From a virus, in the IMG/VR virus record IMGVR_UViG_3300007511_000075, positions 1-33,650 of that record: a DNA stretch of 33,650 nucleotides, one strand, 5' to 3'. Positions 1,342-33,414 of this stretch are shown piece after piece. Position numbers and translations under genes: made by a program. The first letter of the stretch is position 1. Every line of letters begins with the position of its first letter. The notes under the pieces were generated by a model. That model searched no databases. It had not been told where the DNA came from and was given only the letters and a program-made list of their open reading frames with translations.

Positions 1342-1407
1342 TGCTTGCAGAGTGCTAGCAACATGCTAGCAACATGCTTGCAACATGCTAGCAACATGCA
1401 AGCACTT
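1342..1407 (+). repeat. Array of six 11-bp iterons, consensus TGCTAGCAACA
   Basis: Tandem units begin at 1342, 1353, 1364, 1375, 1386 and 1397. The four central copies are identical to TGCTAGCAACA except for one base in the 1375 copy, while the two outer ones are degenerate. Each central unit contains the palindrome TGCTAGCA (TGCTTGCA in the 1375 copy). The 11-bp period is close to one helical turn, so equivalent bases face the same side of the DNA. The array lies between terS and the next gene and is not translated from the best-supported start (1459). It is a candidate TerS-binding or packaging (pac/cos) element. A purine tract of AGAGA repeats follows at 1427-1455. Confidence 0.75.
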
Positions 1408-12111: not shown

Positions 12112-12120
12112 GGAGCAATT

Positions 12121-12861
12121 ATGGGGATAATAGTTGAACAATCAATAGAGCCAAGAACGCTTCTTACGGCTGTTAGGCGTATACTTACAGCAAACGGGCA
12201 TCCAGAGCCAACCACGGTAGTTGGGGCTTCAGGGTCGGTACAGAAGGCTGTCCAGGCCGTCAATGACGCACAGGATGAGATCTATGCGCAGACCCAATGG
12301 CAGTGGCGCTTTAAGTGGTGGCCAATAGAGTTAACGGAGGGCGTTATGTGGTATCTAGTCCCAGGTGATTTTGGGGAGATGGCTGTTGATATACCATTTA
12401 AGGACGCGACATCTCAGATCGATGGAATTTCTTATCACGACCTATGTGATAAATATCCGCACATGAGACACTACCCGGCGGACTCTGGGATTGATTTAAG
12501 TTTAATTATAGACGCTACGAGCAGTACGGACTACCTGGGTTCACCAAAACTCTATACTGTGTGGGCTGGCCATCTCGGCCTTGTTCCGAGGCCAGACGCG
12601 GAGTATATAGATAAACAGTTAGGCTCTATTGTTGGCGGCTACTACAAGACAGCGCAGGATCTCTATGGGGACTCTGACGCTATTGATATGCCTAAGCCTA
12701 TGTGGCGAATACACCATAACTTAGCCAACGCGTACTATAAACAGTATATGGAGTTTAGTGACTGGCAAGCGACGGAGCAAAGGGCAATGGCTCAATTGCA
12801 GAAAGCTGTCACTATGGACAAGAAAACCACGCGTACCGTCAATAGGATGAGGGCGTTGTAA
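12121..12861 (+). CDS. Tail adaptor / tail tubular protein A-like
   Basis: This 246-aa protein immediately precedes the nozzle gene, the gp11-gp12 order of T7-like phages. The early region AVQAVNDAQDEIYAQTQW, followed by WRFKWWPIELTEG, matches the helix-plus-aromatic pattern of short-tail adaptor (gatekeeper) proteins. The mid part (VMWYLVPGDFGEM and KLYTVWAGHLGLVPRPD) is beta-rich. The C-terminal MWRIHHNLANAYYKQYMEFSDWQA is the long helix that packs on the portal in this family. AAGGAG at 12110-12115 with a 5-nt gap gives the ATG at 12121. The stop overlaps the next start (TAATG). Family assignment is by pattern and synteny. Confidence 0.65.
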   Translation: MGIIVEQSIEPRTLLTAVRRILTANGHPEPTTVVGASGSVQKAVQAVNDAQDEIYAQTQWQWRFKWWPIELTEGVMWYLVPGDFGEMAVDIPFKDATSQIDGISYHDLCDKYPHMRHYPADSGIDLSLIIDATSSTDYLGSPKLYTVWAGHLGLVPRPDAEYIDKQLGSIVGGYYKTAQDLYGDSDAIDMPKPMWRIHHNLANAYYKQYMEFSDWQATEQRAMAQLQKAVTMDKKTTRTVNRMRAL

Positions 12862-14660
12862 TGGGCTATGAAGAAAAAATACCGATCAGTGAGCCGTTAA
12901 ACTTTGGCGGGTTGGATACATATAGCACTCCAATAGCCATTGGTGATGAAAGCTCACCGGCTCTTAATAATGTAGATTTACACCCGTATGGCTCAGTGAG
13001 TAAACGCAAGGGATTTAGCAATATTGATGTAAGTGGGTTAACTGGCACAGGCAGCAGTGATGGTTTGTTTCACCTGAATAAACCGATAGATTCAGCGTCG
13101 TTTTTATATGCAGTGAAAAATGGTGTTTTTTATAGGCGTAAGTACGGGGCGGACTGGGCGGCTATGGATATAACAGAAACTACAGTTACGCCTGGGGCTA
13201 AATATCAAACCGCTATAGCTAGGTATCTTGTTGATCTTAATACCCTTGAAACTCCGTCAGACTTATCGGATGATACCGAGGTAGGTGAGGCGGTATATAT
13301 AGCTAACGGCGTAGACACCCCCTGGGTTGACTGGGGTGGCGAGCGTGGGTTTTCACCGCCAACAGACACTAAATTAAGAAACATGGTCTTTGGGGTTTAT
13401 GGTACAGAGGACGGAAATGGAGTTCCTAACGAAGATGGGATTAGAGGCATACCTAACGGTGCGGATAGTGGAGTTTATGGAGACGAAAATACTCCTTATG
13501 AAGCAAGGGATTGGGGGGACGATCCGCCAGAAGGGTTTATCCTTGCGGGCCAGGGCACAACAGAGAGATTAATAGCGTGGGGCTTTGACGAAGAGCCATC
13601 GCGTGTTGACTACTCTGAGCTTGGCGTACCATGGAACTTCCTAAAGAGCGGCATAAATGGAGTAGAGACTGGTGGTTTATTTAGCATTGAAGACAGTCCT
13701 TTAGACGGCGGGTTCTTTCACGCCATGCGCTCTGATGGTGACAGAGTGGTTGCCGTTCGTGAGCTTCTTGGGTACTTAATTGTATTCAAAGAAAGGCACA
13801 CCCTTGTATATACTGGTGATCTAGGGTCTACTTTTGGATTAGCACATAGCTATCCAGTTGGCTGTATTTCAGCTAAATCAATTATTCAGGTTGGCAATGA
13901 CCTGTTGTTTTGGTCTGAGGACGGGGTTCACTCTCTGTCGGCAGTACAAAGACATGGTGATCTAGCCCAAAATAAAATAGATAAAGATATTCGCGGGCTA
14001 ACTGAATCTTTAACTAAGAACACTATGACTGAAATTTGTGGCTACCATGATGCTGATAATGCTAGGGTTGTTTGGTTTGTACCAGAAAATGCAGCACCAG
14101 CCAACACGTCCGCGTTCGTGTTTTATTATGACGGTAAACCGCGATGGACTAGGTGGTCAGGCACTATGTGTGAATGCAGAGATGCAGTGAACGCCAATGT
14201 GGACGGGGCCTCTAAATCACAAGTGTATTTATTAATAAATGATGGGCGACTTGGGGTGGCTGACGGCAGTATAACAGACGATGACGCTCCTATCTCAGCT
14301 CACTATACAACTAAATGGCTTGATATTGGCGGCAGTGAGCTAAGAAAACGCCTGTTATGGTTGGATGTGTTTGCGGCTGACTCAGATAGTGATATATTAG
14401 AAATATCATTGGCCTGGGATTTTGTTGAGGAGTGGCGATCTGTCTTAGATGGCCTTGGCTCACTGGGTGAACATGTTCCCGGGGCATGGGATAGCGCTAT
14501 ATGGGACCAAGCGAAGTGGGACACAAACACGTCAACAATTAAAAGATATCAAGTTGAAGGCACTGGATACTTAATGAGATTAAAAATAAACGACGATAGC
14601 GAAAAAGGATTTCGTGTCGATGGGTGGAAACCGGAGATCAGACGAAAAGGACTACGATAA
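12861..14660 (+). CDS. Tail nozzle / tail tubular protein B-like
   Basis: This 599-aa protein overlaps the adaptor stop by one base. It is almost entirely beta-strand in character. The opening LNFGGLDTYSTP, followed by ALNNVDLHPYGSVSKRKGF, is the familiar beginning of phage nozzle-type beta-propeller proteins (also the gene 12-like group). Later features include YIANGVDTPWVDWGG (about residues 147-161), RVDYSELGVPWNF, LGYLIVFKERHTLVYTGDL and GNDLLFWSEDGVHSLSA, which match the repeated blades of that fold. The tail end contains a jelly-roll-like region (about 470-599). It would form the hexameric tube that contacts the adaptor and through which DNA leaves. The stop overlaps the GNAT-like start (TAATG). 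Confidence 0.75.
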   Translation: MGYEEKIPISEPLNFGGLDTYSTPIAIGDESSPALNNVDLHPYGSVSKRKGFSNIDVSGLTGTGSSDGLFHLNKPIDSASFLYAVKNGVFYRRKYGADWAAMDITETTVTPGAKYQTAIARYLVDLNTLETPSDLSDDTEVGEAVYIANGVDTPWVDWGGERGFSPPTDTKLRNMVFGVYGTEDGNGVPNEDGIRGIPNGADSGVYGDENTPYEARDWGDDPPEGFILAGQGTTERLIAWGFDEEPSRVDYSELGVPWNFLKSGINGVETGGLFSIEDSPLDGGFFHAMRSDGDRVVAVRELLGYLIVFKERHTLVYTGDLGSTFGLAHSYPVGCISAKSIIQVGNDLLFWSEDGVHSLSAVQRHGDLAQNKIDKDIRGLTESLTKNTMTEICGYHDADNARVVWFVPENAAPANTSAFVFYYDGKPRWTRWSGTMCECRDAVNANVDGASKSQVYLLINDGRLGVADGSITDDDAPISAHYTTKWLDIGGSELRKRLLWLDVFAADSDSDILEISLAWDFVEEWRSVLDGLGSLGEHVPGAWDSAIWDQAKWDTNTSTIKRYQVEGTGYLMRLKINDDSEKGFRVDGWKPEIRRKGLR

Positions 14661-15184
14661 TGAAGTGGAAGCTAGAAGAGATTAAGGATATGACAGCAAT
14701 ACAATACTACGAGCTCGCTAAGCACCACAGGCTCGTCCCTGACAGCCCTGATCACGCCGTGGCTAAATATCAACACTTAGAGAAGACAGCGGTAGCTATG
14801 AGGCTTACAGAGGGCAATGAAGAGCTGGCAATATTTATTATCTGTGATGTCCTTGAAGGCAACACGGCCACTATTGAAATGATTCCACACCCACAGCACT
14901 TCAGGGGTGGGTATAACGATAAACTTATTGAGGCTATGGAACCTATTTGGGGACAGGCCTTCAATACCTTGGGCGTTAGAAGGCTAACAGCTTTTATACC
15001 TGAGAGCCGCGGGCGCACAAAAAAAGCGCTAAAGGCTTGTGGGTTTAGACACGAAGGCAGAATTAGACAAATGATTAAATTTGAAAAGAAAAACCCAGAA
15101 GATATTTTCGTGCTTGGGTTACTCAAGGGTGAGCAGGCAATTCCAAAAACAGGTGAGACAAAAGATATGGACGGTGAGCAGTAA
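14660..15184 (+). CDS. GNAT-fold acetyltransferase-like protein
   Basis: The frame is open from 14624, but ATG 14660 shares a base with the nozzle stop (TAATG) and has AAAAGGA upstream. This gives 174 aa. The strand-helix pattern is GNAT-like: ELAIFIICDVLEGNTATIEMI (strands 4-5, split here as ELAIFIICDV and NTATIEMI), an HFRGGYNDKLIEAMEPI helix, then VRRLTAFIPESRGRTKKALKACGF and RIRQMIKFEKKNPEDIFVLG, the last matching RimJ/RimL-type C-termini. The R/Q-x-x-G-x-G/A acetyl-CoA loop is degenerate (FRGGYN). Phages with this gene order often carry a GNAT here; the substrate is unknown. A structural repurposing is possible. Confidence 0.65.
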   Translation: MKWKLEEIKDMTAIQYYELAKHHRLVPDSPDHAVAKYQHLEKTAVAMRLTEGNEELAIFIICDVLEGNTATIEMIPHPQHFRGGYNDKLIEAMEPIWGQAFNTLGVRRLTAFIPESRGRTKKALKACGFRHEGRIRQMIKFEKKNPEDIFVLGLLKGEQAIPKTGETKDMDGEQ

Positions 15185-15888
15185 TGGGTTTTAGTTTTGG
15201 CAAGGCTTTAATGGGTGGGGTTTCTGGCTTCTTGACCGGTGGGCCTGCTGGGGCTGTTATAGGTGCTGCGGGCGGCGGGTTGAGTGGCGGCGGTGATGTG
15301 ACTACAGGTACATCATCATCATCAACATCACAGCAAGTAAGAGCGATGACGGCAGACGAGAAAACGCGTTACGGCGCAGCTCAGCGTATGTCTATGGATA
15401 ATATGGCGATGTTACAGCCGGGCGCGATGGACGCTAGGCGCGACCAGATAGGTGCGGAGCTTCAGGCTTCTCTCGAGGCTAGCCTTGGCCAACAACACAG
15501 GCGGCAAAGCGCGGCTCAACAAACCAGTCTTTTGGCTAGGGGTATGGGTGGTGGATCGTCTTCTGCGGCAATGAGGGGCAGCTTATTTGGACAAACACAA
15601 CAAGCGCTAGGTATGGGCACACTACAAGCCAAGACGCAGGCCGGGCAAATGGCCCTTGGTGAGATGGCAAACTATAGGGCTAACTTAGGCGCAAGCCAAC
15701 AAATGTTTAGCGGGATAGAACAGGCGAGAGCTGGTTCTACGTCAGGCACGTCAAGCGGCACGATGACCCAGACAGCCCCAGACACCTCCACTGGGGATAT
15801 GTTGGGTATGGCTATGAGTTCACTTACTGATCCAGATAGCAAATGGGGTAGTAAGGCTAATGATTTTCTATCTGGCTTGTTTAAATAA
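15184..15888 (+). CDS. Gly-zipper internal virion (ejection) protein
   Basis: This 234-aa protein starts one base inside the previous stop (TAATG). The N-terminus has a glycine zipper (about residues 8-38; GGVSGFLTGGPAGAVIGAAG), able to span a membrane. A Ser/Thr run encoded by CATCAT-type repeats follows, then a long Ala/Gln/Met-rich helical region (about 60-180; DQIGAELQASLEASLGQQ). This architecture resembles the smallest ejection protein of podoviruses (T7 gp14-like), which inserts in the outer membrane. It is followed by two larger putative ejection proteins. Identification rests on composition and order, not on a named motif. Confidence 0.6.
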   Translation: MGFSFGKALMGGVSGFLTGGPAGAVIGAAGGGLSGGGDVTTGTSSSSTSQQVRAMTADEKTRYGAAQRMSMDNMAMLQPGAMDARRDQIGAELQASLEASLGQQHRRQSAAQQTSLLARGMGGGSSSAAMRGSLFGQTQQALGMGTLQAKTQAGQMALGEMANYRANLGASQQMFSGIEQARAGSTSGTSSGTMTQTAPDTSTGDMLGMAMSSLTDPDSKWGSKANDFLSGLFK

Positions 15889-15898
15889 GGGGTAACTG

Positions 15899-17260
15899 AT
15901 GACTAATATATTTGCAGGAATAGCGGCCGGGGCCGAAAGGGGCAGGGCTACAGCCTTAGCTCGGAAGAAGCTTAAGGTGGCACAGACAAAAGAAAACAGA
16001 CTCCAGGCTACGGCTAATCTAGATGAATGGGAGTCCGCATCAAATTACCAGGATGGCATTTGGGAATTAACCCAGGGCGATGGCCCGGTTAATATAGATG
16101 AGATCTCAGGTAAAATGAAGATAGGTAAGGCTATGTACGGCGACTCATTTTATATAGACGGGGCTGATCTTCTTATGGATTTACATGCTACACCTGCGGA
16201 GCTTGAAAGTTTTATAGGCACAGGTGCTAGTGATGCTGATAAAAAAAGACTGAAACAGTATACTGATATATATGAAGGGGGCGACATAGAGTTACCTGAA
16301 GGAGTAACTCGCGTAAGTAATGATAAATATCACACCACAATAAGCCATCAAACAAAAGCGTATAATACTAATATTAGTGAAAAGGATTTTTTTGAAAGAC
16401 ATCCAGAGTATGCAAATAAAAAGAAAGCGCGTGCTGGTGAATTAAAAAACCTTCACGGCTTCATGTCCGCAGAGGCACAACAGAAGCATCAAATGTCTTG
16501 GGAAATGGACAAGATGGAGTTCATGGAAGCCAAGCAGACAAATATGGAGCTTGGCAAGCACGGCCAAGAGTGGAGAGCTGCGATCGCGGATGGCTTCTCT
16601 AAAAACTTAGAACCATTCAGCAATGACCCTGAGACAATTGGTAAGTGGTTAATCGGCGCCCAAAAGGCCGGAGCTGAGAGCGGCTTCTCTCAGGACTTTA
16701 TAAACGATTCCTTAGCCCCTTACTATGAGCAAGGTAAGATCATGCGCGCTAAGTATATGGCAAAAATAAAAGGCCAAGAAGATGAACAGCAAGCAATAGA
16801 GAGATGGAACACCTCGTTAAGGCTAACCGGTAGCGCTGTCAACGCAGAGCTTGCTAGGCATGCTGGCGCGAGGGATGTAAATCTAGGCATGGATGGAAAC
16901 TTCAAGGCAAACTTCGAGGGTGCAGAGATGGAAAAATACAAAGCGTGGACGCAGGCTGCAAGACCTTATATTATAGCAGGTCTGTCAGCCCCAGAGGTTC
17001 TTGAACAAGTTATAGGCGATCCTGTTATGAAATACCCTGATGTTTCGTTTGAGGGTGAAAAAATACCAATAGATCGAATGCCGCAGATAGTAAAAGAGAT
17101 AGAAAACATAGATGGTTATGTTTATTATAACGAAGTGTTTATAGACCCTGTCAATAAAACTAGATACCCGGCTTCGGATTTAATACAGAGATGGTTGAGC
17201 TGGGTGGAAAAGAACCAGCCGACATCGCCATTCATTACCGGCATTCCTTACGGAGGTTAG
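15899..17260 (+). CDS. Internal virion (ejection) protein, 453 aa
   Basis: AAGGGG (15887-15892) is spaced 6 nt from the ATG. The N-terminus IFAGIAAGAERGRATALARK is a basic helix typical of the second ejection protein of podoviruses. The rest is largely helical and charged, with no catalytic motif seen. The region about 290-345 (QQAIERWNTSLRLTGSAVNA and KYKAWTQAARPYIIAGLS) looks like an alpha-helical repeat. It would be packaged near the portal and ejected with the genome. Its place between the Gly-zipper protein and the very large ORF follows the T7 gp14-gp15-gp16 logic. Confidence 0.55.
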   Translation: MTNIFAGIAAGAERGRATALARKKLKVAQTKENRLQATANLDEWESASNYQDGIWELTQGDGPVNIDEISGKMKIGKAMYGDSFYIDGADLLMDLHATPAELESFIGTGASDADKKRLKQYTDIYEGGDIELPEGVTRVSNDKYHTTISHQTKAYNTNISEKDFFERHPEYANKKKARAGELKNLHGFMSAEAQQKHQMSWEMDKMEFMEAKQTNMELGKHGQEWRAAIADGFSKNLEPFSNDPETIGKWLIGAQKAGAESGFSQDFINDSLAPYYEQGKIMRAKYMAKIKGQEDEQQAIERWNTSLRLTGSAVNAELARHAGARDVNLGMDGNFKANFEGAEMEKYKAWTQAARPYIIAGLSAPEVLEQVIGDPVMKYPDVSFEGEKIPIDRMPQIVKEIENIDGYVYYNEVFIDPVNKTRYPASDLIQRWLSWVEKNQPTSPFITGIPYGG

Positions 17261-17264
17261 TAAT

Positions 17265-19373
17265 ATGAGCAAGTTGAATGATTTAGCTACAGACGTAAAA
17301 ACACCTGAACCTACTATGGAAGACCTGCATAACATAGAGCTCCCTAAACAAGGGCCAACAATGAGAGAGATTCTTGAGACAGAACTTCCTGAGATCAAGC
17401 CTGCTCGGGTTGATCTTGCTAGCGCAATAGAGAGGCATAAAGAAACAGCTGTGTCTATGAGCACAACTCCAGTTGAGTCATTAAAGCCTATATTAGATGA
17501 GCCTATCACAACACAAGAGATGGCAGAGAAGATCATAGCCGCCGCGCCGCAAGAAGTGCAAGAATATGTAAGAAGACAAACCGAGACTGCACAGGCCGCT
17601 GTTATTGGTGATATAAAGACAAACTTTAGCACTATTGAGGCCGCAGTTAAAGGATACAAAACTAAAAAAAGAGCATATAATATATCATATGAAATTGGAA
17701 TGAAAGAGCTTGACTATGAGAGTTCTTGGCTAAAGCAATCTAATGAAATGAACGACCGGGAGAGCGTTGAAAGAAAAGCATCTAATCGGATAGGCTTGCC
17801 AATATCAAACGTGACCTATGGCATACAACAAAGATATGGCGTAACGGTTAGAGGTCTTAAGAGAGAAGGCGACGAGCAAATAAGAAGCGTTTATCTTGGT
17901 GGGTACAGGCCTGAGGCTATGGGTGAAGATAGTTTTATAGAGCTTTCTAACAAGCTTGTATCAAGAAGAGATATACTCGTCCATAGAATAGGAACTAAGT
18001 ACGAAGAAGATAACGACAGAAGTGAACTTGCAGAGATAGATATTTTCATAACAATAAATGGAATGCCAGACAAACAAGCTGGCGCGTTCCCTGATCTAAT
18101 GACAAAATACCCATATAGGGGATTCGACGCTACGCCGCCAGAACACAAGAGAGGCATAGCTAAGTTGGGTTGGGATAAGACTATAGGCGACCGTGAAGGT
18201 ATCCGACTTAAGATGTATAAGAAGTGGAAAGCTAAGCCTAAGAAGATTCATGGTGTTGATAATTTAGATAGCGGCGACGACAGCGTGGACCGAGCTATCA
18301 TGTCATCTAACTTGAAGGCTCCACTGTCTAAATCCGTAGACGAGGGTATACAGCAGCTTAGATTCATAACAACATACCTAGCCAATAAGGTTGGGCTCAC
18401 GGAAGATGAGTCCGTACTTCAAGCGTTCGAGACAATGCAAAACACTCGCCTTAAGTATGAGTGGATGGGTGAATCATCTGGAGCTGTCAAATGGGTGCAG
18501 GATGCTATTGGAGCATTTGGATCTATGGCGGTAATAATGACCCCGGCACTGGCCGGTGAGTTCGTTATAGGTAAGATGCTTACTAAGTTTGGTGGGAAAT
18601 GGATGACCGCACAGGTCATTGCTAGCATTTCTGCTAAGACGGGTAAGACTATATCAGTGGTCAGTGAATCACTTATGGAGCAGGCTGGAGTTTTAGAAGA
18701 ACTATATCATGAAGAATTAAATAAGCATGATCGAAGCAAATATAGCAACACAGAATGGGCGAAGCTAAAAGAGGATTTATTTGACGATGCGTATATGAAG
18801 TCATTTGCTACTTTTGCGGCCAACCTTGCTATAACAGGCCTTATGCCTGATTACTTTAGTCCTAATGGGGCTATACGAGGCAAGGCCTTTAAAAAGGCTT
18901 TAAGGAACGCTAGAGAGGCAGCTAAGACAGGGCTAAGAGAGGCTGGTCAAGAGGGTATGCAGTCGGCGATATCACAGCTTAATGTTATATTTGCCACCGG
19001 TCGCAAGGTCTCAGACTTCAGCGCGCTCCAGGTATTATACGAAGCGTCTGTTGGTTTCGGACCAGGTGCTGTTATGCACTATGTGTCACAGGCCACGAAT
19101 TCGATATCAGGGGACAGTCTGTCTCCAGAGGATATCCAGGGCTTGATCGAAAGGGCACAGGAGCAAGCCAGAATAGGCGAGATGTTTCTGGACACTCTTA
19201 TTAAAGACGGTGAAATAAAAGTTGATATTGATGATATTGAGCTTATACCCGTAGAGGCTTTAACTGAGATCCTTATGGAAGCTGGCCAGATGGCTAGTAT
19301 GCTTAACGCGGAGGGTACGGGCCCACATGAGATGTATGCGGAGATATATGAAAAACTTGGCAAGGGCATCTAG
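17265..19373 (+). CDS. N-terminal part of a giant ejection protein, ending at an in-frame TAG
   Basis: This is a 702-aa protein. GGAGG at 17252-17256 supports ATG 17265. The first 50 residues are Pro/Glu-rich, followed by helical charged segments. Residues about 415-445 are hydrophobic (AFGSMAVIMTPALAGEFVIG), and a later part has REAGQEGMQSAISQLNVIF (about 560-580), reminiscent of membrane-active parts of large podovirus ejection proteins. It ends YEKLGKGI at TAG 19371-19373. The same frame then runs on without a stop into the 2781-aa ORF. Other phages of this type usually encode one uninterrupted protein here, so this may be its N-terminal third, either truncated, separated by reinitiation, or extended by readthrough. 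Confidence 0.7.
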   Translation: MSKLNDLATDVKTPEPTMEDLHNIELPKQGPTMREILETELPEIKPARVDLASAIERHKETAVSMSTTPVESLKPILDEPITTQEMAEKIIAAAPQEVQEYVRRQTETAQAAVIGDIKTNFSTIEAAVKGYKTKKRAYNISYEIGMKELDYESSWLKQSNEMNDRESVERKASNRIGLPISNVTYGIQQRYGVTVRGLKREGDEQIRSVYLGGYRPEAMGEDSFIELSNKLVSRRDILVHRIGTKYEEDNDRSELAEIDIFITINGMPDKQAGAFPDLMTKYPYRGFDATPPEHKRGIAKLGWDKTIGDREGIRLKMYKKWKAKPKKIHGVDNLDSGDDSVDRAIMSSNLKAPLSKSVDEGIQQLRFITTYLANKVGLTEDESVLQAFETMQNTRLKYEWMGESSGAVKWVQDAIGAFGSMAVIMTPALAGEFVIGKMLTKFGGKWMTAQVIASISAKTGKTISVVSESLMEQAGVLEELYHEELNKHDRSKYSNTEWAKLKEDLFDDAYMKSFATFAANLAITGLMPDYFSPNGAIRGKAFKKALRNAREAAKTGLREAGQEGMQSAISQLNVIFATGRKVSDFSALQVLYEASVGFGPGAVMHYVSQATNSISGDSLSPEDIQGLIERAQEQARIGEMFLDTLIKDGEIKVDIDDIELIPVEALTEILMEAGQMASMLNAEGTGPHEMYAEIYEKLGKGI

Positions 19374-19457
19374 AACAGCTTAGAGGGTTGGCGGGACTCT
19401 AGGACATTTTATGAAAAAGAGCAAGCTAAGCTAGATAAAGAGCGCGGCAAACCAGAG
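19371..19457 (+). other. In-frame amber codon plus 28 open codons joining the two giant-protein frames
   Basis: TAG at 19371-19373 is followed in the same frame by 28 sense codons (starting NSLEGWRDSRTFYEKEQAKL) up to ATG 19458. The inferred peptide is charged and helical like the segments on both sides, so it reads as coding. No ATG, GTG or TTG lies in these 28 codons, and no Shine-Dalgarno precedes 19458. Reading TAG as one residue would give a product of 702+1+28+2781 = 3512 aa. Confidence 0.6.
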
Positions 19458-22400
19458 ATGTCAGGGTGGCAGCAATGGGCTGAGGCTGTTGAGGAGATTG
19501 AGGCGCAGAGGCGTGATGAGTTAAAGCCAATGGAGGCGATTGAAAAGGAAGATCTCACTCCAGCAGAAAAGTTAAAACAAAAAGCTAACGAGGCTAGTGA
19601 AACCAGAGAGACTATTTCTGGCGAAACTGTGGCTAATGATATAAACGAGATGTCTCGTGAGACCGATGAGTCTGGCGAAGATATGAAACTTAGTGAGTAT
19701 GAGAAAAAGAGAGTTAGCGCAAGGGAATACAAAGAAGAAAGCGTGGACCTTAATAAACTCCTAGAAACAGATCCAGATTTTAAAGCCGCTCACGAGAGTA
19801 GAGAGAAAGATGGCGGGCTAGCCTCACGCTACAAGGGCGAGGATGTCTCTAGTGAAAGCCTAAGCCAACCAATAACCGTAATAGATGGTGAACTTGTTGA
19901 TGGTTATTCAAGAGCGTCAGAGCTCCTTAGTCAAGGCGAGGGCAAAGCCACTGGATATGTAGCTATTCCAAAAGGCAAGTCAAAGCTGACGCTAGGCACA
20001 TCCAGGCCAGCCAAGCCAAAAACAACCAAGCCGCAAACACCGAGCGAGTCCGACCTTCCGGGGATGAGATTAAAATCACTAAGCGTAATCGAAAACAGTA
20101 TGCACCAAAAGATGTCTCGTAGTGAAGTCTTTATGCTCTTGAAAGCTAAAGGCGTAACAGCTGGCGAGATTGCTGACCTTAAAATCAAGGAGTGGGTAAA
20201 AGAAAATCCTAAAGGTAAAGTTGAGCAGGGCGATGTGCTCACGATGCTCAAGGATAAGTCGCCTAGTCTTCATTTTATAAAAAAAGAAGATAAGACCGCA
20301 GAAGCAAACGAGATAGAGGCTTCGATTAAATCTAAAGTCAAGCAATATACTAATCTAGCTGAAAAAATAAGCAAGTTAGAGATGAAGGCCGAAGAGGGTA
20401 GGGCCACAGATCACGAGATAGGCGAAATAAATAAAATAAAGCAAGAGCTTGATTCCTTAAATGAGGAGATAGAGGCGAAATGGAAGCGGCTTCGCAAAGC
20501 AACCCCTCCAGAAGACGATCTCTTAAATAATGGGCATAAGAAATATAGTGTATCGGGCAAGTCAGAAAACCCTGAAAACTATGCTAACTATAGAGAGATA
20601 TTAGTGACTGATGAGGATAGTTATTTTGTAGAGGAGGACCATTACTGGGAGGCTGGTATAGCCTTCACTGTTCGCGGCTCTGATATAGTTGGAGACAGTG
20701 AAACGTTCTTGATCGACGAGATCCAGAGCGACGTTCACCAAAGAGGGAGAACTGCTGGGTATCAAGGTAAAAACCATGACGTAGAATTGGAATCAGCTAG
20801 GGAGGAAATTAATCGTGAAACAATTAAAAGAGAAACACTTAAAGGTGAGCTTCATGCTCTCATTGAGAACTATATAAGAAAAGAAGTACCTAAACAGTTT
20901 TTAATTGACACACTAGAGCAGCGGCTGGGTCACGAGGTGAGAGAGAGAGACATAGAAGTTTACTACGCAACGTTCATGTCAAAGATGGTTTATGCCGTCA
21001 AGACATTACTGGCGGCCAAAGACAAAGGCGTAAGTCTTGCGCAACTGGCTAAAAACACGGAAGGCGGGGACCCTTTTTATAAACTAGATGAAGAGGTTAA
21101 AAGAGCTTTTCCTGTTATATTATCAGCAAACAGTGGCTATAACAGCGCTATAGATTTTAGCGATACAATCAAAACGAATACAGTTCAGGATATTGCGAGT
21201 CGCTTAATGAAGTCACAGGAATTCTCGGAGCTTAAGGAAAGCTTAAGGAGAATAGCAAGGGCTGATGAGACTCTTAAGACTCTTCATAAGAAAGTAGACG
21301 AAACCGCGCTTAAAACTTCATGGATTAAGGCTGGGCTACAAACCGCAATAGCTGAAGCTGTAAATAATAATAGAGGTGAGGTCTCTATAGCTACAGGTTT
21401 TGAGCAGATAGAGCGAAACTTCGTAAAAGAAGTTGCAAAGCACTATTATTCCCGGGATAAGCAAAAGGCATTAGATGCAATTTCTAATCTTAGAGCTAGA
21501 TATATAAACAATATATTTTCTAGTAGAGAGGCCATAAAGATTATGGACTCACTAGATAAATTCTACAACACACGCCTGCCGGGTATGCTTAAGAAGTTTG
21601 GAAACAAACATGGTGCAGAGGTTAGCCTAGTCGAGAATGATGACGGTGTTGTTAGATGGACTCTTAAACTTAACGATAAGATAAGAGATCAGGTTAAAAC
21701 TAAAGGGCTTAATTTACACACCTCCAAGATCAACGAAGGCGAGAGCTCGCGAGTGCCTCTAACGCCAACCGTGAAATCAACCAAGACTTTGTTACGCCAA
21801 GTTAAAAAAAGAGGCGTATCATTTATTGAGTTCGTATTGGGTGGCAAGGGGTCTAAGGGTTTAGAAAATTTAAAAAGTAAGTGGAATAAAGAGTATTCAG
21901 ATCCTGCGAAATACAGGGCTGGCAAAGAGAGACAAAAATCATTAACAATGGCCAAAAATGAAGCTAAGGGGCTTGGCTTTATCGTGTGGCTAAATAGAAT
22001 TATTAAGAATGATAAAGCGCTGACAGTTGATTTTACCGGAGCACCTGTTGATTTAAGCACAGAGTCTGGCCGAAAGGATTTTGTGTTACTTACTGAGTTG
22101 ATGAGGAGCAGGAATTTTGAAGTTGGCAGGACTTTGTTTGTTAAAGATGGTGTGATTTTAATGTCTACAGATAGGACATTTGGAGACCCTGCGTCTACCA
22201 CTGTAATTTCAGAAGATATGGATAGCGAGAGCGCCAAGGAAGCCGTGAAAAATGTAATGAATTATGCAAAAGCGCTAGCCTGTGATGAGGTTATATTTCT
22301 TCATAACCACCCCACATCAGAGGTTGTGCCATCGACCGCTGACCTTACAACTCATGCAACTATCCAGATACTCACAAGTAAATTTAATAAGCTCAATCAA

Positions 22401-25400
22401 ACCAATATAAAATCAACAGACATTACTATAAATCATGGTATGTTTTCAGTGATGGGTGATATTATAACAGGGCAGGACCCGCGAGTTAATGCATACACTA
22501 GACAGGAGCAAGAAAAGGAGCGCTTGCGAAAAGACACGCTTGCTGTAAAAGAAGACGTGGATAGTCTACAAGGCGAAGAGAGCCTTGATGTTTACGAGAT
22601 GGCTAGAAACGATCTTACTGTAGTTAGAATTAAATCGGTAATGGGCTCGGTTGATCGGTTATTGAGCTCAGGAATAGGCAGCGAAGCAGCTGGAGATATT
22701 GAGTCTGACCTGGCTGAGTTTATAGATATACCAGAGAAGCCCCGCTCGGCCGAAGGTATTGTTGGAAAGTTAGAAAATTTAGCGGATCAAGGAAGGTTGG
22801 ATGGGCAAGATTTTGCCATAGCCTATGTTGACCCTCAACAAAAGCTTACAGGTATAGTCACGGTTTCATATCAGTCACTTTCAGAGCAAATGCATGACAC
22901 TGGTTTTTGGGAGCGCATGAGGGCTGAGTTCGGCGGTTATGGTATCCTGGTCCCACTAAATAACCAGGCAGCCAATTCTTTACTTTTGAGAGACATTAAC
23001 GCCCTGAGCGAGCTTAACACCCTTGACCTCCTTAAGCCACCAGCTGATCTTAAGTATGGGGGAGGTATAGCTACTTACGGAGGCCCGGCCATCCGGGTTG
23101 GCGCGGACAAGATAGGTTTACCTGTAGAGGCAAGCAAGATTTCTCCGGCGATTAAAGCGTTTGAGTCCCTCGGCTCTGATACTCGGAGTGAAATGGGGTA
23201 TTCTAAGAATATTGATATAAGGAAAAAGGGCAAGAGGTCTCGAACTCAGGCGGAGAACAGGTTGCATGAGGCTGCGATTCATGATGTGCTTATAAAAGCA
23301 AAAGAGCTTGGCTTGGATGTTGCTAAATTCAGGCAGTGGTATAGTGAGTCTATTAGCGCTATGAGAGAGCAGTTGGTTAAAGATTTGCCAGCACTAGCCG
23401 AACAGGAAAATATGGCCCTGTTCGATATAATGCTTGCGGTTTTCTCAACAAAAACTGGCGTTGCAATGAACTACGACAACGCGTTTGATGCTATGGAACA
23501 CTACCTTGAAGCGGGAGAGCTTAAGGTTAGTAAAAACAAATCTAATAATGATGTTCTTTTAAATTCAAAAGATAAAATTATTGGTGGTATGTCAGGTAAA
23601 GATATGTATATTACCATGTCTAAGATTATGAGCGCCATTGAAGAGATGGGGGCTGGTAAGCTGCACCAATGGTTAATGAGGTCTGATGTTAGTAAACAGG
23701 AATTTATAGATGTATTCGGCAAAGTACCCAGCGGTGCTATGGTCGGGGGCAATAAAGGACACCTTATATTTGGGCCAAAGGTTGGCGAATTTTACGCCGC
23801 AATAACTGGCTCATCTAACGCCTTAGTGATTGATAGATGGGTGATGTATTGGGCTGTCAGGCACTTAGGTGTTATGACAGAGATGGTTACAAATAAAGGG
23901 AGGAAGGTTCGATCTAGGATTGAAGCTCCTAATAATAAGGGCACACGAGAGGTAATAAAAAATGCGTTTAGCCGGGCGCTTGAAGATGTCAATGAAGCGA
24001 CCGGAGAGAGCTGGACTATGGCTGAGTTACAGGCCGTGGTATGGATGCTTGAAAAGAACATACACGCTAACAACGAAGCGCTTGTTGAAGATGTTAATTC
24101 AATCAGTGATTTTGAGGCAGCGGCACTAACAAGAGAGGACCGAGATGGCAACACCAAACTGGAAGATAATGGAAGAGGTAAGGGAGAAGGGGATGGAGGC
24201 CTTTCGGTCGGGACAGAAGATCTCCAGGGCCAAGGCAAGCCTGCTGTGGAAGGCACAGCGCAGCAAATTACGATCGAAACAGCTCAAGAAATAGCCGATG
24301 CAATTAATGATAACGGAGGGTTTACGTATGACCCTAAAACAGGGGAGGTAATCACTAGTGTCAATGAGGATACTTGGGCTGTTGGTGTGACCCCAGAGTT
24401 ATCTCACAAGGCACAGGCACATAAAAAAATAACAGCTGAGCAAGTGCAGACAACCATACAGGAATTTATAGCTAACTCTAAAAAGGCAAGCCCGGGGCTT
24501 AATGATTTATTTGAATTAGATTCTGGCTTTAAGCTCGGTGGTTGGGTAAATAAAGAGGGTGTATTCTTTGTTGATGTAACAATGCTGATAACAGAGTCTA
24601 GATCTGGTGGCAAGGGCCCAGCTAAATTAAAAGCCATGCAACTAGCTAAAGAGCAAAACCAACAAGCTATATTCAACTTAAATGATTTCACTGAGGTAGA
24701 TACCGGTGGGACTGGTGAGGCTCGGCCCGGCATTAATATAGTAGCTGAGGCTAAAAAGCTTGGAAACAAGTATGGGGATAACACAGCGAGCTCCTTAGAA
24801 GACGATGTTGAGGTAAAAGACTCCTCTGGAGCACAAAAGCTTCTTGATATAGCCAAGCGCTTCTCACGAACAGGCAGGAAAAGTGCTCTTGGAAGAGCCG
24901 TAGAGGCTGTCAAAAACGCCCGTGATATATCTAGGAAACTAAGGAAGAAGTCTATTGCTGATCACGTGAGTAATTTCTACACTAAATGGCTTGATCCGCA
25001 TTGGCCGGCAATCAGGGCTGTTAAGAAAGCGCTGAAAATTCAAGGTAAAGGGATGCGTGATTTAGCCGCGTCCTCTAACCCTGTTATACTCGCAAGAACT
25101 ATGATGAGGTGGACCGCTATTGCAGATAGCTTCCTCCGTGGTAAAGGTGTCGCTAAATGGGACAATGCAAATGAGTACACATCAGAGTCACTCGAGAAGA
25201 TAATGCGCCCTATTAAAGAAAAAGACATTGACGCTTTTAACGCATATCTTATAGCTAGGAGAGTTATAGATCTTGCTGAGACTAAACCAGAGGGGTTTGT
25301 TGATGTTGAAGTGTTGGCGGAGAATGAGGCTGTAGTTGAAGAGGCTTTACAGGCCCACCCAGAATGGGCTGAATTAGCGTCCAAGATCACAGCGTTCAGT

Positions 25401-27803
25401 AATGCAGTTCTTGAGTACACTAAGGATGCTGGTTTAATCTCGGAAGAGGAGTACGGCCACCTGGTTGAGATGCATAAGAACTATGTGCCTCTACATGTGT
25501 TGGCTATCCTAGATGAGAATGGCAACCCATCGTCAGACTATAAGGACGGGACTAGGGTCGCGTCTGTATGGAAGCCTATATCTGAGATAGATGAAAATAT
25601 AGTTCGTGTTCCGCCACTTGAATCAATAATCAAAAACACCCACTTCTTAATTAACCTAGCACTTGAGAATGAGTTTAAGAAAAGCATCGTTGACGCTGTT
25701 GGTGATAGCGCCCCTGAAATTGTTCAACATATAGCTGATGTGGTTAAGGGTGAGCATGGCGTAACGGTTGAACAGTTAGAGGATATAGTTGACACTGAGG
25801 GAATGACTGACAAACAGATTGCTATGGTGTTAAAGCTATCATCAGCGAGAATGATAGGTGATAGTGGCCGTATAGCTATCCTTAGAGATGGCGTGACTGA
25901 GGTATATGATGTAGACCCTGGGATATATCATGTGCTGAGTAATATAGCTAAAAGCAACACAGCCCCTTGGATGAAGTTCCTGGCGGCGATGTCAGGGGCT
26001 AAGCTTCTGAGGACTGGCGCTGTCTTAGCCCCAGAGTTTACAATACGTAACCCTTTGAGAGACATATTAGGCTCATCTATATTAGGCAACTTCGTGCTAC
26101 CGCTAACTCCATATCACTTTATGAAGGCGCTGGCGCAATATGTAGGCAACACTGATCTATTTTACCAATGGATAAACTCCGGTGGGTCTCTAGGGTCTAT
26201 GCTCGGCTCGGACATTAACGAGGCTAGGCGCGAGGTGCTTGGCTCTAATGAAAAGAAGTCACAGCAAGAGGTTTATGAGCTTAAGCGTTCATCATTGCAC
26301 GGCAAAAAAGAATATATGCTGTCTGCGTCTGGGTTATTGCAATTAATTAACCCTGTGTTCTGGGGCAAGCGCGGTGTTGGCGCTATAAGGACTATATCTG
26401 AGGGCGCGGAGTCCGTCTCCAGACTATCAACATATGACAGGCGCTTACATGCTCTTATGAAAGAGGTAGCGAAGGGCAACATGACAATACGCGACGCTCA
26501 GTTAATGGCGGCGTTTGAAAGTGTAGAGGGCTCTATTGATTTTTTGAGGCAGGGAGAGTGGGCGGCAGATGCTAACCGATTATGGCCGTTCTTCTCAGCA
26601 CTACTTGGTGGCGTTGATACGACATTTAAGAAACTGGCATATGACCCAACCGGGATGACAACTAAGTCTCACAGGGCTAAAGTATGGGGCTCAGGGGCAA
26701 TGCTTGCCGCAGCCTCACTATTCCTCTGGAACCAATATAAAGACGATGAGGAATACAAGAGCATACCGCTTGAGATTAAGCTGATGGCTTGGCCTGTTAA
26801 GATTGGTGACTACTGGTGGTATATCCCTAAGCCGTTTGAGCTAGGCTTTATCTTTGCCACACTGCCAGAGCTGTTTGCTCAGCATGTGTACGATGATGAG
26901 CCGGGGTTAATTGAAGACTCGTTAGAGGGTTTTCTTCACACTACTCTGCCTAGTGGGTTGCCATTCCCTATACCGGTAGCTATAGGGCAGGCGGCGGCGA
27001 ACTACGACATGTTCTATGACGCTAAAATAGAGGGCCGCACTGACGAGACATTACCGAGGCACATGAGGTACAGCTCAAACTCATCAGCAATAGCCAGGGA
27101 GCTTGGTGCGGAGGCTAAAAAGTTACGCAATCTGCCGCTTATAGGTGAGGCTTTTGAAGAGGGCTTATCGCCTAAAAAGATCGACTTTATGATTAGGGGC
27201 GCAGGCGGTGGCCTTGCAAGGTTTGCGGTCCAGTTAATTTCTGATGGTATCCGAGCGGCTAAACCAGAAATTTATGGCAATGCCCCAAGCATGCACTATA
27301 TTTGGTGGAGAGTTTCTGCTGAAACTCCGGGCATTACAGGCCTGGTTGATCCAGCTCCGCTACGGAGGACTGTTCACGTTGAGAAGTTTTATAGTTATCT
27401 TAATAAGGCACGACACACTATGGGCGCGATGAATAGCATTACATCCGGTGGTGGTACATACGATGACATGGTTACAGCTTTAGCTGAGGACTGGTTCTGG
27501 GTAGGAGCTGCTGGGATTATGGCAGAACAGGCCGAGACGATGGCTGAGATCAATGGCTATATCAGCGTGTTAGAGCATGGCGGGATGATAGAAAAAAGTA
27601 GCACTATGTCACCTGATGAGCGCCGCGACAAGATAGATGAGTTGATAACCAGACGGAATGGGTTAGCTAAGAGAGTTGTAGAGAAAATAGAAGAGCAACA
27701 TGAGAAATACACCAGCGACCCAGAGATGATGGATAAATACCGGGACACGGTTATTAAGAATGCTAAGAAGCTACTCTTGGATTATGAAAGTGAGACAAAA
27801 TGA
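19458..27803 (+). CDS. Giant polyvalent ejection protein with JAMM and LPD-like domains
   Basis: This is 2781 aa from ATG 19458 (no ribosome-binding site; see the upstream amber). Coiled, charged segments fill the first 400 residues. IDEIQSDVHQRG at about 419-430 matches a motif of large polyvalent phage/plasmid proteins. A RadC-like JAB metalloprotease motif is complete: His949-Asn-His951, then Ser959 and Asp962 (HxHx7SxxD). FGPKVGEFYAAITG (about 1435) and WMLEKN match another polyvalent domain. From about 2194 (TIRNPLRDILG) through WWYIPKPFELGFIFATLPE (about 2452-2470) and SPKKIDFMIRGAGGG it resembles LPD38. No RNA polymerase motifs were found. It is likely packaged and injected to counter or modify host proteins. 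It ends ATGA-overlapping with the next gene. Confidence 0.8.
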   Translation: MSGWQQWAEAVEEIEAQRRDELKPMEAIEKEDLTPAEKLKQKANEASETRETISGETVANDINEMSRETDESGEDMKLSEYEKKRVSAREYKEESVDLNKLLETDPDFKAAHESREKDGGLASRYKGEDVSSESLSQPITVIDGELVDGYSRASELLSQGEGKATGYVAIPKGKSKLTLGTSRPAKPKTTKPQTPSESDLPGMRLKSLSVIENSMHQKMSRSEVFMLLKAKGVTAGEIADLKIKEWVKENPKGKVEQGDVLTMLKDKSPSLHFIKKEDKTAEANEIEASIKSKVKQYTNLAEKISKLEMKAEEGRATDHEIGEINKIKQELDSLNEEIEAKWKRLRKATPPEDDLLNNGHKKYSVSGKSENPENYANYREILVTDEDSYFVEEDHYWEAGIAFTVRGSDIVGDSETFLIDEIQSDVHQRGRTAGYQGKNHDVELESAREEINRETIKRETLKGELHALIENYIRKEVPKQFLIDTLEQRLGHEVRERDIEVYYATFMSKMVYAVKTLLAAKDKGVSLAQLAKNTEGGDPFYKLDEEVKRAFPVILSANSGYNSAIDFSDTIKTNTVQDIASRLMKSQEFSELKESLRRIARADETLKTLHKKVDETALKTSWIKAGLQTAIAEAVNNNRGEVSIATGFEQIERNFVKEVAKHYYSRDKQKALDAISNLRARYINNIFSSREAIKIMDSLDKFYNTRLPGMLKKFGNKHGAEVSLVENDDGVVRWTLKLNDKIRDQVKTKGLNLHTSKINEGESSRVPLTPTVKSTKTLLRQVKKRGVSFIEFVLGGKGSKGLENLKSKWNKEYSDPAKYRAGKERQKSLTMAKNEAKGLGFIVWLNRIIKNDKALTVDFTGAPVDLSTESGRKDFVLLTELMRSRNFEVGRTLFVKDGVILMSTDRTFGDPASTTVISEDMDSESAKEAVKNVMNYAKALACDEVIFLHNHPTSEVVPSTADLTTHATIQILTSKFNKLNQTNIKSTDITINHGMFSVMGDIITGQDPRVNAYTRQEQEKERLRKDTLAVKEDVDSLQGEESLDVYEMARNDLTVVRIKSVMGSVDRLLSSGIGSEAAGDIESDLAEFIDIPEKPRSAEGIVGKLENLADQGRLDGQDFAIAYVDPQQKLTGIVTVSYQSLSEQMHDTGFWERMRAEFGGYGILVPLNNQAANSLLLRDINALSELNTLDLLKPPADLKYGGGIATYGGPAIRVGADKIGLPVEASKISPAIKAFESLGSDTRSEMGYSKNIDIRKKGKRSRTQAENRLHEAAIHDVLIKAKELGLDVAKFRQWYSESISAMREQLVKDLPALAEQENMALFDIMLAVFSTKTGVAMNYDNAFDAMEHYLEAGELKVSKNKSNNDVLLNSKDKIIGGMSGKDMYITMSKIMSAIEEMGAGKLHQWLMRSDVSKQEFIDVFGKVPSGAMVGGNKGHLIFGPKVGEFYAAITGSSNALVIDRWVMYWAVRHLGVMTEMVTNKGRKVRSRIEAPNNKGTREVIKNAFSRALEDVNEATGESWTMAELQAVVWMLEKNIHANNEALVEDVNSISDFEAAALTREDRDGNTKLEDNGRGKGEGDGGLSVGTEDLQGQGKPAVEGTAQQITIETAQEIADAINDNGGFTYDPKTGEVITSVNEDTWAVGVTPELSHKAQAHKKITAEQVQTTIQEFIANSKKASPGLNDLFELDSGFKLGGWVNKEGVFFVDVTMLITESRSGGKGPAKLKAMQLAKEQNQQAIFNLNDFTEVDTGGTGEARPGINIVAEAKKLGNKYGDNTASSLEDDVEVKDSSGAQKLLDIAKRFSRTGRKSALGRAVEAVKNARDISRKLRKKSIADHVSNFYTKWLDPHWPAIRAVKKALKIQGKGMRDLAASSNPVILARTMMRWTAIADSFLRGKGVAKWDNANEYTSESLEKIMRPIKEKDIDAFNAYLIARRVIDLAETKPEGFVDVEVLAENEAVVEEALQAHPEWAELASKITAFSNAVLEYTKDAGLISEEEYGHLVEMHKNYVPLHVLAILDENGNPSSDYKDGTRVASVWKPISEIDENIVRVPPLESIIKNTHFLINLALENEFKKSIVDAVGDSAPEIVQHIADVVKGEHGVTVEQLEDIVDTEGMTDKQIAMVLKLSSARMIGDSGRIAILRDGVTEVYDVDPGIYHVLSNIAKSNTAPWMKFLAAMSGAKLLRTGAVLAPEFTIRNPLRDILGSSILGNFVLPLTPYHFMKALAQYVGNTDLFYQWINSGGSLGSMLGSDINEARREVLGSNEKKSQQEVYELKRSSLHGKKEYMLSASGLLQLINPVFWGKRGVGAIRTISEGAESVSRLSTYDRRLHALMKEVAKGNMTIRDAQLMAAFESVEGSIDFLRQGEWAADANRLWPFFSALLGGVDTTFKKLAYDPTGMTTKSHRAKVWGSGAMLAAASLFLWNQYKDDEEYKSIPLEIKLMAWPVKIGDYWWYIPKPFELGFIFATLPELFAQHVYDDEPGLIEDSLEGFLHTTLPSGLPFPIPVAIGQAAANYDMFYDAKIEGRTDETLPRHMRYSSNSSAIARELGAEAKKLRNLPLIGEAFEEGLSPKKIDFMIRGAGGGLARFAVQLISDGIRAAKPEIYGNAPSMHYIWWRVSAETPGITGLVDPAPLRRTVHVEKFYSYLNKARHTMGAMNSITSGGGTYDDMVTALAEDWFWVGAAGIMAEQAETMAEINGYISVLEHGGMIEKSSTMSPDERRDKIDELITRRNGLAKRVVEKIEEQHEKYTSDPEMMDKYRDTVIKNAKKLLLDYESETK

Positions 27804-32733: not shown

Positions 32734-32956
32734 CCTCGGATGGGAGGCATTTAGGGATATATTTACTGGCTTAGCTGTTGCGTGGTATGGGTTTGTGAAA
32801 TTTCTCCGTGCCAAAAAAGGCACAACGGCCTATGATGAAACAAGAGAGAAGTGTAAAGAATTTAAAAAAACCCTTGACCATCACGCCAATAAGGTCGATC
32901 ATACTCTTAATGAGATAGAGAAAGCAATAGCTGAAATCAAAGGGAGGCTAGGGTGA
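32720..32956 (+). CDS. Small membrane/coiled-coil protein, possible holin
   Basis: This 78-aa frame overlaps the phosphoesterase end by 14 nt. GAGAAGG (about 32710-32716) precedes the ATG. Residues 8-29 (WEAFRDIFTGLAVAWYGF) form an amphipathic or membrane segment. Residues 45-77 (FKKTLDHHANKVDHTLNEIE) have heptad hydrophobics and form a likely coiled coil. One membrane element plus a coiled coil, directly before a transglycosylase endolysin, recalls XhlA-like or holin-associated proteins. Its TGA shares a base with the endolysin ATG, so the two are coupled. The role is inferred. Confidence 0.6.
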   Translation: MENNSLGWEAFRDIFTGLAVAWYGFVKFLRAKKGTTAYDETREKCKEFKKTLDHHANKVDHTLNEIEKAIAEIKGRLG

Positions 32957-33414
32957 TGAATGAAGGGTTTATAAATAAGAAGGCGAGGCAATTTAATTTA
33001 GATCCAGATCTAGTTCGTGCAATTATATTTGTTGAGTCTAACAATGATGCAAGGGCGATGAGATACGAGCCAAACTATAGATGGCTTTATGAGTTTATCA
33101 ACCCTATGTGCACTAAAGCAACTGAAGAGATGCAACAATCAACCTCGTGGGGCTGTATGCAGATCATGGGCGCTACAGCAAGAGAGCTGGGTTGTGACAA
33201 GCCTTGGCTTAACTGTCTGTTAGACATACCAGACAACCTACATTATGGTTGTCTGTATCTAAGCTCTATGATCCATAAGTACGGAATAGATGGAGGCGTG
33301 AGCGCTTACAACCAAGGCTCACCAAGGAAATATGATGATGGTACATTTAAGAATCAGCCTTATATTGATAAGGTGTTCTTAAGAATGAAAGAGCTTAAAG
33401 GAGAATTAAAATGA
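32956..33414 (+). CDS. Lytic transglycosylase endolysin (SLT fold)
   Basis: A start is also possible at GTG 32953, but ATG 32956 has GGGAGG (32942-32947) 8 nt upstream, giving 152 aa. The SLT/goose-lysozyme pattern is clear. DPDLVRAIIFVESNNDARA carries the catalytic Glu27 in the ES-N context. SWGCMQIMGATARELG is motif II, and GVSAYNQGSP the AYN motif. Cys residues at three positions (CTKATEE, GCDKP, NCLLD) could stabilise it. It cleaves peptidoglycan glycan strands during lysis. There is no signal peptide, so release needs a holin; the small membrane proteins upstream are the candidates. Confidence 0.88.
   Translation: MNEGFINKKARQFNLDPDLVRAIIFVESNNDARAMRYEPNYRWLYEFINPMCTKATEEMQQSTSWGCMQIMGATARELGCDKPWLNCLLDIPDNLHYGCLYLSSMIHKYGIDGGVSAYNQGSPRKYDDGTFKNQPYIDKVFLRMKELKGELK

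What the first reader, a model, noticed from the sequence alone, without database searches (positions are those of the whole stretch)
17265..27803. A single TAG splits what looks like one 3512-aa giant ejection protein; candidate stop-codon readthrough
Seen: the 702-aa frame ends at TAG 19371 and the same frame continues, stop-free, through 28 charged helical codons into the 2781-aa frame. ATG 19458 has no Shine-Dalgarno, and no alternative start lies in the 28 codons, whereas nearly every other gene here has a clear site or coupled overlap. TAG ends at least seven other genes in the window, so it is not globally reassigned. Known: coliphage N4 packages a roughly 3500-aa protein, and related phages often have one uninterrupted giant gene. 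Inference: programmed or suppressor-tRNA readthrough could make two products in a fixed ratio, or a recent nonsense mutation or sequencing error split one gene. One caveat is that 28 open codons alone would occur by chance about a quarter of the time.
Basis: partly seen in the sequence, partly recalled or inferred. Interest (0 to 1): 0.8.

Follow-up and report, generated by a model that had tools for sequence, protein, structure and literature searches.

The report
Giant phage ejection gene, one stop
In this uncultured phage, a single stop codon cuts what relatives show to be one giant gene for a protein injected into the host with the DNA; it is most likely a one-off mutation or sequence error, not a built-in readthrough switch.

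Summary
TAG 19371-19373 ends a 702-aa ORF (17265). The same frame then runs 2809 codons without a stop: 28 linker codons, then ATG 19458 and 2781 aa. Relatives show that this was one gene. In every kin contig with the same cassette (tail-tube B, GNAT acetyltransferase, gp14-like, gp15-like), one long ORF stands where the window has 702 | 2781; complete ones are 1921-2754 aa. A profile built without the 702-aa protein finds it as the N-terminal membrane module of those giants (E 2.9e-7), and 53 distinct ORFs carry this module and C-terminal LPD38 together. The 702-aa start has a strong Shine-Dalgarno. ATG 19458 has none and lies in the most structured start region tested. The linker scores as coding DNA. 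So the gene is a gp16-like 'polyvalent' ejection protein interrupted by an amber codon seen in no relative. Programmed readthrough is not supported: the stop is not conserved, no RNA structure follows it, the window holds no tRNA, and seven other genes end in TAG, two of them in frame with the next essential gene. A private nonsense change or consensus-base error is most likely. A recent functional gene split and host amber suppression remain open. The N4 polymerase analogy is not supported.

The parts
17265..19373 (+). 5' part of the giant gene (702 aa, ends TAG): N-terminal part of a gp16-like ejection protein; start has strong SD GGAGGT, 7 nt spacing
   Evidence: SD
18417..19238 (+). membrane module (aa 385-658, motif E..GQE..Q) homologous to the N-terminal region of intact kin giants
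   Evidence: hhalign score 52.9 against max 27.9 in 80 shuffled controls; unbiased HMM E 2.9e-7; alignment A7
19371..19373 (+). amber codon TAG interrupting the frame; context ATC TAG AAC
   Evidence: no relative has a stop here
19374..19457 (+). 28-codon linker, stop-free, coding-like composition, no start codon
19458..27803 (+). 3' part of the giant gene (2781 aa from ATG 19458, no SD, dG -30..+30 = -15.1 kcal/mol, most structured start region tested)
22230..22367 (+). RadC-like JAB domain match with HNHP...S..D motif
   Evidence: Pfam PF04002 E 5.3e-5, 23.6 bits, cutoff 22.1; motif read from translation
23766..24050 (+). DUF7178 match
   Evidence: Pfam PF23802 E 1.6e-6, 28.6 bits, cutoff 27
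24921..27683 (+). conserved C-terminal region shared with all kin giants, containing LPD38 (26745-27254)
   Evidence: Pfam PF18857 E 1.1e-28; tblastn/HMM
15899..17260 (+). 453-aa gene in the gp15-like position (position only; no sequence match to kin gp15-like profile)
   Evidence: synteny; hhalign negative
15184..15888 (+). gp14-like ejection protein (234 aa)
   Evidence: hhalign to kin gp14-like profile, prob 98.2, E 6e-14
14624..15184 (+). GNAT acetyltransferase-like gene of the conserved cassette (186 aa)
   Evidence: 38-42% identity to kin; same position annotated acetyltransferase in Pelagibacter phages; weak GNAT Pfam match
12861..14660 (+). tail tubular protein B / stabilization-like protein (599 aa)
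   Evidence: kin alignment A4; PHROG matches; position relative to annotated tail tubular B

Best explanation
17265-27803 is one gene, inherited as a single giant ORF. It encodes the largest ejection protein of a podovirus: a gp16-like, LPD38-type polyvalent protein that is packaged in the head and delivered with the DNA. An N-terminal membrane/channel module would help cross the envelope; the long remainder carries DNA- and host-directed domains and the conserved C-terminus. In this one assembled genome the frame is broken by an amber codon 45-60 residues after the membrane module. The amber is private to this lineage or assembly: most likely a recent nonsense change or a consensus-base error, with no programmed function. 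Read literally, translation from the strong ribosome site at 17265 would stop at residue 702, and the C-terminal part would be made only poorly, by leaky readthrough or weak internal initiation. Shown: the sequence facts, homology, synteny and uniqueness of the stop. Inferred: virion location and function (from T7 gp16 and the polyvalent-protein literature), the recency of the change, and its lack of function.
For: One uninterrupted giant follows the gp15-like gene in all kin contigs that reach it: G002 2572, G017 1921, G018 2494, G019 2754, G032 2604, G033 2633 aa; G001 >=1603 and G016 >=1090 run off the contig; G004 is a single giant with one frameshift. The 702-aa protein matches the N-terminal module of these giants and not the gp14 or gp15 profiles. 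Of all ORFs carrying the module, 53 distinct ones also carry LPD38 downstream; a real stop within 100 aa after the module occurs only in the window, in L121 (frameshift at a G7 run) and in a fragment, L143. Strong SD at 17265, none at 19458 or at any later in-frame start tried up to 19743; start-region structure is worst at 19458. The linker is coding-like. No stimulator structure (z -0.16 and -0.80), no tRNA, no Rfam family. No other gene in the window looks interrupted.
Against: Reads cannot be inspected, so error and real mutation cannot be told apart. A nonsense change in a virion protein expected to be essential should not become the consensus of a living phage population unless it is tolerated, suppressed or erroneous. 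The stop falls between the membrane module and the later domains, which is where a tolerated split or a functional readthrough would also fall. The near kin share only 45-57% capsid identity, so conservation of the stop in truly close relatives is untested; the one close contig (L180, 90% capsid identity) ends before this region.
Confidence: 0.6

Rival explanations
1. Functional gene fission: a recent in-frame nonsense change produced two working genes, a 702-aa membrane ejection protein and a 2781-aa LPD38 protein started at ATG 19458, in a phage that tolerates the split.
For: The break lies 45-60 aa after the membrane module and before the later domains. The window is a dense, otherwise intact phage gene array. 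Distant relatives carry the LPD38 protein as a gene separate from the preceding gp15-like gene, so adjacent ejection proteins do assemble as separate chains. ATG 19458 is the first in-frame start.
Against: No SD, no overlap coupling, 84 nt from the stop, and the most structured start region tested. The linker still looks coding. No kin genome shows such a split except by frameshift or in fragments.
Confidence: 0.2
2. Readthrough or suppression: host or phage decodes UAG at 19371 often enough to make a 702-aa and a 3512-residue product, either by programmed readthrough or by an amber-suppressor tRNA from the host or the missing part of the phage genome.
For: The frame stays open and coding-like for 2809 codons. 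Both modules are joined in all intact kin. The stop is followed by A, a favourable 3' context for amber suppression (own knowledge; the Bossi 1983 context study is cited in PMC11126739). Phages that reassign TAG with suppressor tRNAs are known (PMC11210395). The record is a linear fragment, so missing genes are possible.
Against: The stop is not conserved in any relative. No downstream structure, no tRNA in the window. Seven other genes end in TAG, and reading through would fuse TerL to portal and scaffold to major capsid. Measured TAG readthrough in E. coli averages 0.01-0.8% depending on temperature (PMC11126739).
Confidence: 0.16
3. Ordinary, long-standing pair of separate genes, the gp15/gp16 pair of T7-like phages.
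For: Most distant LPD38 genes are preceded by a separate 450-720 aa gene of similar size to the 702-aa ORF.
Against: In the window that place is held by the 453-aa gene, and the 702-aa protein matches the N-terminus of the giants, not the gp15-like profile. No ribosome site for the second gene; coding-like linker.
Confidence: 0.04

Closest known systems
LPD38-type phage polyvalent proteins (Iyer et al. 2017, PMC5512222)
   Same: LPD38 at the C-terminus, very long multidomain chain, RadC/JAB-like domain, encoded among virion genes, module plus LPD38 in one ORF in kin
   Different: Frame interrupted by TAG. [quoted passage not shown]
T7 gp16 ejection protein (with gp14, gp15)
   Same: Last and largest of three adjacent ejection genes after the tail tubular B-like gene. 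Kin giants begin with an SLT transglycosylase domain as gp16 does (PMC8954989).
   Different: Two to three times longer, carries polyvalent domains, and has no SLT at its N-terminus in this phage (an SLT gene lies apart at 32953-33414). No direct sequence comparison with T7 gp16 was made.
Coliphage N4 virion RNA polymerase (about 3500 aa)
   Same: Giant protein of similar length expected in the virion
   Different: No RNA-polymerase domain found by Pfam or NCBIfam; the homologues are LPD38/gp16-like.
Code-15 (TAG reassigned) phages such as some crAss-like and Lak phages
   Same: An in-frame TAG inside a late structural gene
   Different: Only one gene affected, no suppressor tRNA in the window, TAG is a normal stop for seven other genes.

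Membership tests
LPD38 phage polyvalent protein | LPD38 domain above curated cut-off | tested here: met
   PF18857 101.1 bits against cut-off 27
LPD38 phage polyvalent protein | Several unrelated domains in one polypeptide | tested here: met
   RadC-like JAB, DUF7178 and LPD38 in the 2809-codon frame
LPD38 phage polyvalent protein | Encoded among virion genes and packaged or injected | tested here: inconclusive
   Genomic position among tail and ejection genes met; packaging itself cannot be tested here
T7 gp16-like ejection protein | Third of the ordered gp14, gp15, gp16 genes after tail tubular B | tested here: met
   Same order in G001, G002, G018, G019, G032, G033; gp14-like confirmed by profile, gp15-like by position only
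T7 gp16-like ejection protein | N-terminal SLT transglycosylase domain | tested here: not met
   No SLT in the 702-aa part; present in kin G001 and G002. So 'works like gp16', not a strict gp16 family member
Programmed stop-codon readthrough gene | Stop conserved in relatives with open coding frame after it | tested here: not met
   No relative has a stop at this place; kin are distant
Programmed stop-codon readthrough gene | 3' stimulatory structure | tested here: not met
   z-scores -0.16 and -0.80
Programmed stop-codon readthrough gene | Spanning product made in vivo | not testable with these tools
   needs proteomics or reporter
Code-15 phage (TAG reassigned) | TAG avoided as a stop, many in-frame TAGs, suppressor tRNA | tested here: not met
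   Seven other TAG stops, one in-frame case, no tRNA in the window; the record is incomplete
N4-type virion RNA polymerase | RNA-polymerase domain | tested here: not met
   No such Pfam or NCBIfam match

The most novel reading that the evidence does not exclude
The amber codon is a lineage-specific recoding site: a dsDNA phage uses UAG readthrough or suppression to make a short membrane-channel form (702 aa) and a full polyvalent form (about 3512 residues) of its largest ejection protein in a set ratio.
Probability: 0.1. Interest if true: 0.7.

Novelty: new member of a known kind. Interest (0 to 1): 0.28.

Why it matters
If it is only a private nonsense change or base error, it matters as an annotation point: gene callers will report two unrelated hypothetical proteins, while the pair is one gp16-like polyvalent ejection protein. 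It also places an orphan 702-aa protein in a family. If it were true readthrough, it would be a rare case of a dsDNA phage setting the ratio of ejection-protein forms by leaky termination.

Tried and rejected
N4 vRNAP identity: no polymerase domain. Direct homologue search for the 702-aa ORF: none in phages, IMG/VR by peptide patterns, PDB, Pfam, PHROGs or NCBIfam; only profile comparison worked. Other copies of the junction: none. Global TAG reassignment: rejected. A second in-frame split at TGA 1774-1776 looked similar at first, but the next gene has its own ATG 1807 with a GAGGA site, so it is ordinary. The two-gene gp15/gp16 reading was taken seriously after and dropped. AlphaFold models of the junction and of the 702-aa protein had mean pLDDT 40 and 36 and say nothing. 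Splits in L121 and L157 are frameshift-like, not in-frame stops.

Full report
What is there. The 33,650-base window is a complete virus record by itself, a linear fragment. Terminase, portal and major capsid are clear, and the gene order is podovirus-like. The ORF 17265-19373 encodes 702 aa and ends in TAG. The same frame is then open for 2809 codons to TGA at 27803. ATG 19458 is the first start codon in that stretch.

Is it more than chance? Twenty-eight open codons would occur with probability 0.17 at this base composition, so openness alone is weak. The linker also carries the phased composition of coding DNA: 0.052 bits per base, against 0.070 +/- 0.037 for held-out in-frame windows. It exceeds every out-of-frame window and every intergenic stretch of the phage. 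In-frame adjacency of two genes is common here (TerL-portal, scaffold-capsid and others), but those downstream genes have ribosome sites. ATG 19458 has none, lies 84 nt beyond the stop, and sits in the most structured start region of those tested. The 702-aa ORF has one of the strongest sites, GGAGGT.

Relatives. The 702-aa protein has no direct sequence match anywhere tried. The C-terminal 900 residues of the long frame belong to the LPD38 family. Most distant LPD38 genes are preceded by a separate 450-720 aa gene, which at first suggested an ordinary gp15/gp16 pair. Nearer kin were found through the capsid, tail tubular B-like and LPD38 proteins, and they corrected this. Their cassette is tail tubular B, GNAT, gp14-like, gp15-like, then one giant ORF: 2572 aa in G002, 1921 in G017, 2494 in G018, 2754 in G019, 2604 in G032, 2633 in G033. 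In G001 and G016 it is at least 1603 and 1090 aa and runs off the contig; in G004 it is a single giant with one frameshift. The window has the same cassette with 599, 186, 234 and 453 aa genes, and then 702 | 2781.

Homology of the 5' part. Residues 410-608 of the 702-aa protein align with the N-terminal module of the kin giants (hhalign score 52.9, E 1.5e-5, probability 80%). The best of 80 shuffled controls scores 27.9, and profiles of the kin gp14-like and gp15-like proteins give nothing. An HMM built without the window protein, iterated once, finds it at E 2.9e-7 among 10,985 ORFs. Conserved residues include the E..GQE..Q motif and a following VG. The neighbouring 234-aa protein matches the kin gp14-like profile (probability 98%), which anchors the synteny; the 453-aa protein is gp15-like by position only.

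How unusual is the break? Across all fetched viral contigs, isolates and prophages, 53 distinct ORFs carry the membrane module and LPD38 in one frame. Only three ORFs with the module end at a real stop within 100 residues after it: the window, L121 (a frameshift in a run of seven G) and a 146-aa fragment, L143. No relative shares the amber.

Function. By position and domains this is a gp16-like ejection protein merged with a polyvalent protein. T7 gp16 carries an N-terminal transglycosylase and a membrane/DNA-translocation C-terminal part (PMC8954989); kin giants keep the SLT domain at their start. In the window it is absent from the giant, and an SLT gene lies apart at 32953-33414. Polyvalent proteins are proposed to be injected with the DNA (PMC5512222). 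Virion location and activity are inferred, not shown.

Mechanism at the stop. Programmed readthrough would predict a conserved stop, a stimulator, or a suppressor tRNA. None was found. Global suppression is unlikely, because TAG ends seven other genes and would fuse TerL to portal and scaffold to capsid. Basal TAG readthrough in E. coli averages 0.01-0.8% (PMC11126739). A functional split lacks a start signal for the second half. This leaves a private nonsense change or a consensus-base error as most likely; the tools cannot separate these two, because reads are not available. I put the one-gene origin at about 0.95, and the non-programmed private interruption at 0.6.

Limits. AlphaFold models were too poor to use.

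Noticed in passing
L121:5790-5850 (Pasteurellaceae MAG): A prophage giant of the same kind is broken about 90 aa after the same membrane module by a frame change at a run of seven G, so the frame there could vary by slippage or be an assembly error.
   Followed up: partly
window 22230-22367: RadC-like JAB domain with an intact HNHP...S..D motif inside a phage LPD38 protein; the polyvalent-protein survey (PMC5512222) lists RadC only in proteins of conjugative elements.
   Followed up: partly
window 32953-33414: A separate SLT transglycosylase gene; in kin G001 and G002 an SLT domain is the N-terminus of the giant ejection protein, so the domain may have moved between the giant and a lysis-like gene.
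   Followed up: no
window 14624-15184: A GNAT acetyltransferase-like gene is conserved between tail tubular B and the gp14-like gene here, in the near kin and in Pelagibacter podoviruses; its role in a virion operon is unexplained.
   Followed up: no
L010 (Pelagibacter phage HTVC010P) 8566-13383: In this isolate the gp15/gp16-like region is annotated as several short ORFs, whereas close relatives (HTVC034P, HTVC204P, Lederberg) have two intact genes of about 580 and 1250 aa; possible sequence errors in the reference.
   Followed up: no
window 1350-1400: Short tandem-like repeats (GCTAGCAACAT / GCTTGCAACAT) upstream of the ATG 1459 gene.
   Followed up: no
L267 (G004) 11820-12175: The kin giant is split between two overlapping frames (2284 aa and 662 aa), most simply a frameshift in the assembly.
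   Followed up: partly
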